From the IMG/VR virus record IMGVR_UViG_3300033145_000312, positions 1 through 41,598 of that record: a stretch of DNA of 41,598 nucleotides. One strand, written 5' to 3'. This stretch comes from a virus. Shown piece by piece: positions 7,795 through 37,366 of the stretch. The position numbers and the translations under genes were made by a program. A model generated the notes under the pieces. It was given only the letters and a program-made list of their open reading frames with translations. It did not search any database and was not told the DNA's origin. How positions within the stretch are numbered: the stretch's first letter is position 1; the number at the start of each line of letters is the position of its first letter.

Positions 7795-7823
7795 TTGTGT
7801 AGTATAAATTAGTTAAGTATGGT
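7795..7823 (+). promoter_or_regulatory. rightward promoter for the structured RNA/HNH unit
   Basis: TTGTGT (7795-7800) and TATGGT (7818-7823) with a 17-base spacer lie about 45 bases from the divergent leftward promoter. A transcript would begin near 7830 and cover the structured stretch and the HNH gene. Confidence 0.45.
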
Positions 7824-7829
7824 AATATA

Positions 7830-8320
7830 AGGAGTCAAAGAGATTCACTACCTCTATACAATGACGACAAGCTTAACTTATAATACAGAGAGATTTGTAA
7901 TATTCTTTAGTTGATTTTGTTAAGCGGTCAATGTTAATCGTAGTGGATTAGAAGAGAATGTTATAGATCTCTTTTCTATTTGTGGTTTAGGGAGAATGTC
8001 CTAAAGTCAAGGTTAAATTCCTTGTCTCCCTTTATCACTTACCCTTTGACTGTCTGGGTAGTATATAAGACGGGACACTAAACATGGAAACGGGTGAGTA
8101 TGAGGTCAGGACGCCTACCGAAAGGAAAGTTGTTGATAATATATGCCAAAGTTGATATCTGGATGTGATTATACATTTCAAACCGATTGGGTCAATTCAA
8201 TGATTCATGGTAGTTTTTCTAGTTTTAGGCTGGGCTAGATAGTAGGCTTGTACCACAACAGGGATGATTAGATATGCTCTATGGCTGGTACTGTTGAACA
8301 CTAATTAAAAAACAAATCAA
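7830..8320 (+). ncRNA. large structured noncoding stretch upstream of HNH gene (unassigned)
   Basis: About 490 bases lack a credible gene on either strand but are rich in pairing. GCTTAAC (7871-7877) pairs with GTTAAGC (7919-7925). AGAAGAGA (7950-7957) pairs with TCTC and TTCT (7968-7977). GTGGT plus AGGGAGA (7982-7995) pair with TCTCCCT plus ATCAC (8025-8038), stacked next to CAAGG/CCTTG (8008-8024). GGTAG (8057-8061) pairs with CTACC (8115-8119). GTACCA (8250-8255) with TGGTAC (8286-8291) and CAACAG (8256-8261) with CTGTTG (8291-8296) interleave like a pseudoknot. Local G+C is above that of the flanks. I could not find the classical group I intron core sequences or a group II domain V. Large phage RNAs (ROOL, GOLLD, HEARO) are possible matches that I cannot test here. 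Confidence 0.55.
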
Positions 8321-8330
8321 GGAGAACAGA

Positions 8331-8885
8331 GTGGGGAAAAGCAAGAAAGAACAATCAGCAATAAGGGATGAGAGAAGGGAAGCATTAAAATATTTAGTAA
8401 CCCAATTAAAAAATAAAGGCTTATATGATGAAGAGCAAACACCTAAAAAGAATGTAATGGATTATTTTCAATTAAATATAAGAGGATATAGGCATAGTAA
8501 AAATAACTACACAAGATTAGCAAGATATATGACTTTAAATAAAAACAATATCCCGTATAACATAATACAGTTAAAAGGATATGGAAGTAGAAATGATTGT
8601 GCCTTAAAAACTGAAAAGAAAACATATAAAATGCCGAAGGTTGGCAAGACGTTTTATAGCTCTAGGGAGTGGCGTTCTTTAAGGGTCGATGCTTTAGTAA
8701 AGAATGGTAGAAAATGTTGCCTATGTGGAAGGTCGCCCAAAGATGGTATAATATTACATGTTGACCACATTAAACCAATCAGCAAGTTTCCTGAGCTTAA
8801 ATTGACACTTAGTAATTTGCAGATATTATGTGAAGATTGTAATTTAGGCAAAAGTAATAGATACGATGAGGATTGGAGAGCATGA
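8331..8885 (+). CDS. HNH homing-type endonuclease, 184 aa
   Basis: The C-terminal half is a classical HNH nuclease: a Cys pair in CCLCG (129-133), HVDHIKP (143-149) with the catalytic His, N162, and a second pair in CEDCN (167-171). A charged N-terminal half of about 100 residues may bind DNA. The GTG start has AAGGAGAACAG upstream. The enzyme would make site-specific cuts that promote spread of its own gene, as free-standing or intron-borne HNH enzymes do. It follows a large structured noncoding stretch and lies in an island that splits the head genes, which fits a mobile element. Confidence 0.9.
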   Translation: MGKSKKEQSAIRDERREALKYLVTQLKNKGLYDEEQTPKKNVMDYFQLNIRGYRHSKNNYTRLARYMTLNKNNIPYNIIQLKGYGSRNDCALKTEKKTYKMPKVGKTFYSSREWRSLRVDALVKNGRKCCLCGRSPKDGIILHVDHIKPISKFPELKLTLSNLQILCEDCNLGKSNRYDEDWRA

Positions 8886-8998
8886 AAATAAAAGTAGGAT
8901 ACACAAAGAATAATTTCATATTAGGTTTGGGGTTATATAAACAAGACAATGAAATACATATTAGCTTATTATGGTTCTATATAGAAATTATTCTTTAG
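8882..8998 (+). CDS. small hydrophobic protein, 38 aa
   Basis: This frame is coupled to the HNH gene by an ATGA overlap. It encodes 38 residues ending in a hydrophobic aromatic stretch, SLLWFYIEIIL. It may be a genuine small gene or a remnant at the island border. No function is assigned. Confidence 0.4.
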   Translation: MKIKVGYTKNNFILGLGLYKQDNEIHISLLWFYIEIIL

Positions 8999-9070
8999 AT
9001 GGATAGATTAACAACAGAGTCTTATCTATTAGAAGTTAACTCTTGACAAAGGGTGTAGTTAGAGGTCTAT

Positions 9071-9099
9071 TTGACACTATACAAGTGTTAAGGTATAAT
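9071..9099 (+). promoter_or_regulatory. consensus promoter of the capsid operon
   Basis: TTGACA (9071-9076) and TATAAT (9094-9099) with a 17-base spacer match the sigma70 consensus exactly. The scaffold gene begins at 9129 after AAGGGAG. This should give strong transcription of scaffold and capsid genes. Confidence 0.8.
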
Positions 9100-9128
9100 T
9101 GACTATAATTTAAGAGAAGGGAGCAGAT

Positions 9129-9710
9129 ATGCCAGACGGGACAACGCACGTTGATAATTCAGCGGACACGGTAGTGGATGACACAAACGCAATACCAACA
9201 ATAGAAGAATTGCAAGCACAGATTCTTGAAAGAGACGGAAAACTTGCAGAGGCAATTAAAACTAATGAGACTCAGGCAACTAAGATCAGTGGTTTAGATA
9301 GTGCTAATTCAAAACAGAAAAACGCATATGACGAGTTAATTAAAAAGAATGAATCAGATGCAGAACGAAAGGCAAGAGAAGCCGAAGAGTCGAAACTAGT
9401 AGAACAAACTAGAGTTGACGGAATAACACAGAGAGAATCAGACATAATTAGTCGTGAAAACTCTTTATTGGTAAAAGAAAAAGCTGTAGAGCTAAACTTT
9501 ACAACCGAAGAAAGAGAGTCAATGTTAAAGATGGGGATCAATACTGTTGAAGGTGTTGAAATCTATAGACAAACATTAACTGATTTAGGTGTAAAGAAAG
9601 CAGAAGAGACAGCAAAAAATATATTAGATAGCCATTCTGGTAAACCAGAGGGATATGATAACAAACTAAACAACGCTGACACTGCCTTTGCAAATAGATG
9701 TAAAGCCTAG
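9129..9710 (+). CDS. capsid scaffolding protein
   Basis: The 193-residue protein is acidic and almost entirely helical, with coiled-coil character from about residue 25 to 120, and lies directly before the major capsid gene. Both features are typical of phage scaffold proteins (GP20/DUF4355-like), which fill the prohead and are removed before packaging. The C-terminal part after residue 150 probably contacts capsid protein. It is driven by the consensus promoter at 9071. Confidence 0.8.
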   Translation: MPDGTTHVDNSADTVVDDTNAIPTIEELQAQILERDGKLAEAIKTNETQATKISGLDSANSKQKNAYDELIKKNESDAERKAREAEESKLVEQTRVDGITQRESDIISRENSLLVKEKAVELNFTTEERESMLKMGINTVEGVEIYRQTLTDLGVKKAEETAKNILDSHSGKPEGYDNKLNNADTAFANRCKA

Positions 9711-35915: not shown

Positions 35916-36233
35916 ATGGATATAGGAAGTAAAGAGTTTCAAGAGTACGCAGATAAAGCTAATATACCTAACAGCTATAGGATATGGGCTAATTGCATGT
36001 GGAAAGAAGCACAACGACAGGCAATAAACACCCCTAAGCATGAAACAGTTGAGGAGTGCCATATAATTTCTAAATGGTCAAAACAAAGGCATAAAGAGTA
36101 TTGGTTAGAATGTTGTCCAGATATTAAGATTACAGAGAAATCATATACTAAAATATTTAGTCATTTTAAACATTGTCCATATTGTTGTAATGTGCTAAAT
36201 CACGGTAAACCAGAGATAGAGGGGTTAAAATGA
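35916..36233 (+). CDS. Cys/His-rich hypothetical protein, 105 aa
   Basis: A 105-residue protein with TAGGAGAG upstream. It carries ECHIISKW, LECCPD and FKHCPYCCNVL, consistent with a zinc-binding module. It overlaps the modification gene by four bases and may belong with it. Confidence 0.6.
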   Translation: MDIGSKEFQEYADKANIPNSYRIWANCMWKEAQRQAINTPKHETVEECHIISKWSKQRHKEYWLECCPDIKITEKSYTKIFSHFKHCPYCCNVLNHGKPEIEGLK

Positions 36234-37366
36234 AATTAGAAACAAAAGTTGAAATAGATGAATTTACAAGGCACGCTTCTAAAGTGTTCGATTATGTGTT
36301 TACTGGTAAATCTTATTTTACGTGTCATAATAAACCAAAAATAAAAGATAGTTTTAATATAGGTTTAATAGTTGGTAGCTCTGGGAGTGGAAAAAGTACA
36401 TTATTAAAAGAGTTTGGAGAAGAGATAAATCCAGTATGGGGAAATGACAAAGCAATAGTTTCTCATTTTGAAACACCAGAAAAGGCAGTAGATAATCTGT
36501 CTAGTGTAGGACTTAATTCTATACCCACATGGATGAAGCCCTATCATGTTTTATCTAATGGTGAGAAATTTAGAGCAGACATGTCAAGAAAATTAAAGGA
36601 TAATTCCGTTATTGATGAGTTTACAAGTGTTGTCAATAGATCAGTTGCTAAATCTGCAAGCATGGCAATATCAAAAACAATTAGAAAGCGAGATATAAAA
36701 AATGTTGTATTCTGCTCATGTCATGAGGATATTATAGATTGGTTAAACCCCGATTGGATATTTTACACCGACACAGGAGAATACAGACCAAGGGGGTCGC
36801 TTCGGCAACCTATTATTCGAGTCGACATATTTAGATCAAATTGGCAGAAGTGGGAGATGTTTAAAAAACATCATTATTTGAGTGAAGAATTGAATAAGGC
36901 TTGTAGATGTTATGTAGGAGTATTTGATGGTGTAGAGATTGCCTTTAATGCATCGTTAAGTTTACCAGGAAAAATACCAGAATTATATATAGGGGATAGT
37001 AGAAAGAAATTTAGGGAATCAAGAACAGTCGTACTGCCAGATTATCAAGGAATAGGTGTTGGAACAAGATTCTCAAATGCTATAGCTGAACTATTTTTAG
37101 ATGATGGATACAGGTATTTTTCTAAAACAGCTCATATTAGAATGGGGGAATATAGACAACAATCTAATTTATGGAGAGGTACATCTACAAATTTAAAAAG
37201 TAGAGAGAAATCCCAAAAACAAAGTAAAACAGAGTTATGGCATCATATGGTTTTAGATACAAAAAGGTTGTGTTATTCCCATGAATATTTAGGAGATTTA
37301 AACAGATATAAGAATTTTGAACCAAACAAGGCGTTAGAGGAATTTAAAAAGGGGTTAAAATGCTAA
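36230..37366 (+). CDS. ABC-ATPase/GNAT fusion, Mom-like DNA modification candidate
   Basis: Residues 49-57 (GSSGSGKST) are Walker A, LSNGEKFRAD (108-117) is an ABC-type signature, VIDEFTS (127-133) Walker B, and His165 in CSCHED the switch His. Residues about 195-360 are a GNAT-type acyltransferase, with VVLPDYQGIGVGTRF (267-281) as the CoA-binding motif A. Phage proteins of this kind are related to Mu Mom, which modifies adenine in DNA. The ATPase part may recognise DNA or load substrate. A Dam-like methyltransferase is encoded nearby. Confidence 0.8.
   Translation: MKLETKVEIDEFTRHASKVFDYVFTGKSYFTCHNKPKIKDSFNIGLIVGSSGSGKSTLLKEFGEEINPVWGNDKAIVSHFETPEKAVDNLSSVGLNSIPTWMKPYHVLSNGEKFRADMSRKLKDNSVIDEFTSVVNRSVAKSASMAISKTIRKRDIKNVVFCSCHEDIIDWLNPDWIFYTDTGEYRPRGSLRQPIIRVDIFRSNWQKWEMFKKHHYLSEELNKACRCYVGVFDGVEIAFNASLSLPGKIPELYIGDSRKKFRESRTVVLPDYQGIGVGTRFSNAIAELFLDDGYRYFSKTAHIRMGEYRQQSNLWRGTSTNLKSREKSQKQSKTELWHHMVLDTKRLCYSHEYLGDLNRYKNFEPNKALEEFKKGLKC

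What the first reader, a model, noticed from the sequence alone, without database searches (positions are those of the whole stretch)
7795..8885. Large structured RNA candidate paired with an HNH endonuclease
About 490 bases with a plausible promoter and no gene contain at least five strong helices, including a 12-14 bp stem with stacked branches (7982-8038) and an interleaved pair near 8250-8296 that would form a pseudoknot. An HNH endonuclease gene follows directly. I could not find group I core or group II domain V sequences. This could be a new ribozyme or intron, a member of a known giant phage RNA class, or an RNA guide linked to the nuclease.
Basis: partly seen in the sequence, partly recalled or inferred. 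Interest (0 to 1): 0.85.

Follow-up and report, generated by a model that had tools for sequence, protein, structure and literature searches.

The report
Undescribed structured phage leader RNA class
Upstream of a phage nuclease gene lies a folded RNA module that belongs to a widespread, apparently undescribed class of phage RNAs sitting in front of many different accessory genes, most of which carry an unexplained eight-letter sequence repeated twice; the window itself shows only the first of the class's modules.

Summary
At 7842-7974 a 5' strand pairs with the loop of a 22-bp stem that ends in a U-run. It is unique in the 41.6-kb contig (both strands) and absent from 400 shuffles.

The same pseudoknot-terminator module occurs upstream of HNH relatives 16 times more often than elsewhere. 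It covaries strongly, pseudoknot included. It heads a large phage RNA class (Vibrio, Sulfitobacter, uncultured phages) with no Rfam match. Most members continue into a covarying core and a 3' part in which an arbitrary 8-mer after GGCUCCG is repeated after UUCACCA (63 of 78 unbiased pattern hits). The next ORF starts a median of 15 nt later.

The downstream gene varies (HNH in 6 of 56; also GIY-YIG, methylase, Mom), so an HNH guide is unlikely, as is a group I/II intron. In the window only the 5' module is demonstrable; 7982-8330 matches none of three covariance models and lacks the repeat. Best reading: a cis-acting attenuator-like leader of phage accessory genes.

The parts
7795..7823 (+). 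possible weak sigma70-like promoter TTGTGT-17-TATGGT
   Evidence: read from the sequence; not listed by the consensus scan; relatives have much stronger promoters at this place, e.g. TTGCAT-17-TATAAT in Vibrio phage 2.095.A
7842..7851 (+). pseudoknot 5' strand GAUUCACUAC
   Evidence: pairs with 7940-7949
7887..7908 (+). 5' arm of the 22-bp stem P1
   Evidence: stem score 23; with the pseudoknot the only such site in the contig, 0 of 400 shuffles
7940..7949 (+). pseudoknot 3' strand GUAGUGGAUU, directly before the 3' arm of P1, the same order as in relatives
   Evidence: the equivalent pseudoknot covaries in relatives
7953..7974 (+). 3' arm of stem P1
7972..7981 (+). U-run after P1 (UUUUCUAUUU), terminator-like
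   Evidence: sequence; relatives have UUUUUUAUU here
7982..8330 (+). remaining non-coding stretch; place of the 'core' domain in relatives, but not demonstrably homologous to any of three modelled core types
   Evidence: covariance models R1, R2, R3 give no hit; helices here no better than shuffles
8319..8324 (+). Shine-Dalgarno AAGGAG of the HNH gene
   Evidence: sequence
8331..8885 (+). HNH endonuclease, 184 aa, GTG start, intact HNH motif
   Evidence: Pfam PF01844 E 1.1e-10; conserved core shared with viral and phage relatives

Best explanation
The stretch is the 5' part of a long structured leader RNA of a new phage class. Its first module (7842-7981) is a pseudoknotted hairpin that ends in a U-run. 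Most likely it works in cis as a transcription attenuator: transcripts from a local promoter fold the pseudoknot and P1 and mostly stop at the U-run, and read-through continues into the core domain and the downstream accessory gene (here HNH). Shown: that the module is real and covaries in relatives, its place upstream of accessory ORFs, and that the gene behind it varies. Inferred: transcription, termination, read-through control and any trigger. That the window's 7982-8330 stretch is a diverged core domain is inferred only.
For: The window module is unique in the contig and absent from 400 shuffles. The same descriptor is enriched 16-fold at -240 to -430 of HNH genes (9 in 29 kb against 24 in 1246 kb). 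In alignable relatives 12 of 34 pairs change on both sides, three of them in the pseudoknot, with 98.5% of cells paired and 0 of 500 shuffles as good. In four HNH relatives (L116, L107, L161, L131) the U-run runs directly into the ATG of the HNH gene, the arrangement of an attenuator. In relatives the next ORF starts a median of 15 nt after the RNA. The module is present in 26 of 50 loci chosen only by the 3' repeat and in 0 of 14 control pattern hits.
Against: No transcript data. The window's own promoter is weak. The core domain could not be matched in the window, and the 8-mer repeat is missing there. One relative with the same stem-and-pseudoknot topology (L242, by eye) has no U-run after it, so termination may not be the universal function.
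Confidence: 0.5

Rival explanations
1. A stand-alone structured ncRNA (RNA scaffold or RNA-only particle, like ROOL or GOLLD) made from its own promoter; the downstream gene is merely a passenger in an accessory-gene hotspot.
For: Cargo is very diverse (25 clusters among 56 loci). In L228 the following ORFs look like ordinary head genes rather than accessory genes. In Vibrio phages 1.242.O and 1.240.O a tRNA-Arg is embedded in or beside the RNA, as is recalled for GOLLD and ROOL. Relatives have strong dedicated promoters.
Against: The RNA runs to within a median of 15 nt of the next start codon, always in the sense orientation in the loci examined. No Rfam match to GOLLD, ROOL or OLE.
Confidence: 0.27
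2. A nucleic-acid-guided element: the loop 8-mer R1 recognises the identical site R2 at the RNA/gene junction (R1 RNA pairing with the template DNA strand at R2), so that the RNA directs DNA targeting, cargo exchange or polymerase strand exchange there.
For: R1 = R2 over 7-8 nt and no further (identity 95-100% at positions 1-7, 84% at 8, 27-48% beyond; 31 different octamers). Concerted change between close relatives (L005/L247 AGATGAT, L243 AAGTAAT). No complement of R in the RNA follows R when R changes (p = 0.30). Apart from R1 and R2, R did not recur in the genomes searched for L083 and L041. Cargo changes right after R2.
Against: No dedicated protein; cargo not conserved. The window itself shows no R1/R2, so it does not explain the finding as given. 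R2 often lies in the translation start region, where other constraints could act.
Confidence: 0.13
3. In the window the 5' module is a plain phage terminator with a chance pseudoknot, and 7982-8330 is ordinary non-coding spacer.
For: Whole region z = -0.83; helices in 7982-8330 at chance; no core match.
Against: Stem + pseudoknot + U-run is unique in the contig and absent from 400 shuffles, with the same strand order and distance to HNH as in relatives (-359 against -274 to -389).
Confidence: 0.1

Closest known systems
Attenuator and sequestering leaders of phage homing-endonuclease genes (T4 I-TevI, mobE; recalled, not searched)
   Same: Structured RNA directly before a homing-type nuclease gene, plausibly limiting its expression.
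   Different: Much larger, pseudoknotted, and in relatives attached to many genes that are not nucleases.
ROOL / GOLLD giant phage RNAs (Rfam; PMC12286853)
   Same: Large ornate phage RNAs, sometimes beside or around tRNAs.
   Different: No Rfam match for window or relatives; different anatomy (PK-terminator, covarying core, 8-mer repeat); located directly before an ORF.
HEARO / IscB omega RNA
   Same: Non-coding RNA upstream of an HNH-bearing ORF.
   Different: No Rfam match; the protein is a 184-aa HNH protein with no other Pfam domain found; downstream genes vary.
IS110 bridge RNA / seekRNA (recalled)
   Same: A loop sequence in the RNA repeats a DNA site nearby, as R1/R2 do in relatives.
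   Different: No IS110 recombinase seen; one 8-mer pair about 60-90 nt apart; not seen in the window.

Membership tests
New phage class (5' pseudoknot-terminator module) | 5' strand pairing with a segment just before the 3' arm of a stem of at least about 20 bp, followed by a U-run, upstream of an accessory ORF | tested here: met
   Window 7842-7981, 359 nt before HNH; unique in contig, 0/400 shuffles
New phage class (5' pseudoknot-terminator module) | Covariation of P1 and pseudoknot | tested here: met
   Met in relatives (A4); no alignable homologue of the window itself was found, so not testable on the window
New phage class (full form with core and GGCUCCG-R1 ... UUCACCA-R2) | Core domain match to covariance models | tested here: not met
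   R1, R2 and R3 give no hit in the window, though R1 found L041 blind at 45.5 bits
New phage class (full form with core and GGCUCCG-R1 ... UUCACCA-R2) | 8-nt direct repeat R1 = R2 before the downstream ORF | tested here: not met
   Window p = 0.95; relatives 63 of 78
Group I / group II intron | Core or domain V match and an interrupted gene | tested here: not met
   No Rfam match to E 10; neighbours are a minus-strand gene and the scaffold-position gene, no split ORF seen
HEARO / IscB | HEARO RNA and RuvC + HNH protein | tested here: not met
   No Rfam match; Pfam finds only HNH domains in a 184-aa ORF
ROOL / GOLLD | Rfam covariance match | tested here: not met
   window; relatives
Attenuator leader | Termination at the U-run and regulated read-through | not testable with these tools
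   Needs RNA-seq or in vitro transcription

The most novel reading that the evidence does not exclude
A phage RNA class with a programmable 8-nt segment: R1 in a loop of the RNA must equal the DNA/RNA site R2 at the RNA-gene junction. That points to a new guide-like or strand-exchange mechanism by which phages control or exchange accessory genes, of which the window is a diverged member.
Probability: 0.15. Interest if true: 0.93.

Novelty: new variant of a known kind. Interest (0 to 1): 0.68.

Why it matters
If the class is real, many unannotated gaps before phage accessory genes (homing endonucleases, methylases, Mom, others) hold one folded RNA type that Rfam lacks. It occurs in culturable Vibrio phages, so expression and function can be tested directly. 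The exactly matched but freely varying 8-mer pair is a strong, unexplained constraint that calls for a mechanism.

Tried and rejected
Rfam at E up to 10 on window and on three relatives' RNAs (nothing credible). Group I/II intron (no core, no split gene). HNH-specific guide RNA (cargo varies). Cis switch in which one anti-R segment pairs with R1 or R2: anti-R does not follow R (p = 0.30), and no consistent cis complement was found. Terminator at the RNA 3' end (no consistent U-run after the last hairpin, by eye). A first 'random shuffle' test of R1/R2 was weak for single loci, so the permutation test and the unbiased pattern test were used instead. In one search the unanchored members (L041, L005, L243) had been picked by eye. 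Search for relatives of the window through its head proteins and by RNA sequence: none. Core model in 296 host genomes of one order: none (the search lacked a positive control). Literature searches found no description of the class; subscription papers and preprints are mostly not held.

Full report
The window is a 41,598-bp phage contig held as a virus record. The stretch lies between a Mu-F-like head gene with a block of minus-strand ORFs and the gene in the scaffold position upstream of an SU10-type major capsid protein. 7795-8330 is non-coding and is followed by a 184-aa HNH protein (PF01844) with a good Shine-Dalgarno sequence at 8319-8324.

What is beyond chance. One element is not. P1 (7887-7908/7953-7974, 22 pairs) ends in a U-run, and the segment just before its 3' arm (7940-7949) pairs over 10 nt with 7842-7851. 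A descriptor for this found it once in both strands of the whole contig and in none of 400 dinucleotide shuffles. The descriptor was shaped on relatives that were first compared with the window by eye, so the shuffle count is not fully blind. The enrichment tests below do not depend on the window.

Relatives. No DNA or head-protein relative of the window was found. HNH relatives were, and several have 430-700 nt unannotated gaps upstream, including cultured Vibrio phages 2.095.A and 1.276.O and Sulfitobacter phage phiGT1. The descriptor is 16 times denser at -240 to -430 of the HNH start than elsewhere in the same loci. In four alignable modules P1, P2 and the pseudoknot show 12 pairs with double changes, 98.5% pairing, and none of 500 shuffles or any slid control as good.

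Core. Downstream of the module many members carry a core with four covarying helices (type A: 18 of 24 pairs with double changes, 0 of 500 shuffles). The model found L041, not used in it, at 45.5 bits. Two further types, B and D, have the same layout. Models R1, R2 and R3 do not hit the window. By eye, H1's loop in types A and B pairs with the segment before H3 (a second pseudoknot); this was not scored statistically.

Repeat. In most full members an octamer R1 follows GGCUCCG and recurs as R2 after UUCACCA, about 60-100 nt later. A permutation test over 14 loci gave 0 of 100,000. Identity is 95-100% at positions 1-7, 84% at 8 and 27-48% after that; 31 different octamers occur. Some of these loci are near-copies of one another, so they are not 63 independent events. 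The 5' module occurs in 26 of 50 distinct real hits and 0 of 14 chance hits, which ties the two features into one RNA class. No cis partner of R follows R's changes.

Cargo. The next ORF begins a median of 15 nt after R2, among 56 loci falling in 25 sequence clusters. Six are HNH. Others include GIY-YIG, N6/N4 methylase, Mom and PAPS-reductase-like proteins. In four HNH relatives the module alone precedes the gene and its U-run runs into the ATG.

Mechanism. Shown: a covarying pseudoknot-terminator module that stands before accessory genes. Inferred: that it terminates transcription in most rounds and that read-through sets the level of the accessory gene. The window is assigned to the class on its 5' module, its distance to the gene, its HNH cargo and its place in the head-gene cluster (also that of the Vibrio members). 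That assignment does not extend to the core or the repeat, both of which were tested and not found.

Known classes. No Rfam 15 family matches window or relatives apart from tRNAs. The open-access library gave no paper describing the class.

Noticed in passing
window 9071-9099: Perfect sigma70 consensus promoter TTGACA-17-TATAAT directly before the scaffold-position gene.
   Followed up: no
window 8905-8917 and 8984-8996: 13-bp perfect inverted repeat just after the HNH gene; 9000-9200 also folds better than shuffles (z about -3.7).
   Followed up: no
L235 880-1500; L250: tRNA-Arg embedded between the 5' module and the core in Vibrio phage 1.242.O, and beside it in 1.240.O.
   Followed up: partly
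L237: Vibrio phage 1.226.O has lost the R1 hairpin by deletion between ACCTTT repeats; R2 remains.
   Followed up: no
L240 1480-2040: Two copies of the CTACTTTGCATTTGTGTGGAGTGGGG promoter-like sequence in tandem, each before a different accessory gene.
   Followed up: no
window 36230-37366: ORF that by eye looks like an ATPase fused to a GNAT/Mom-like domain; not tested.
   Followed up: no
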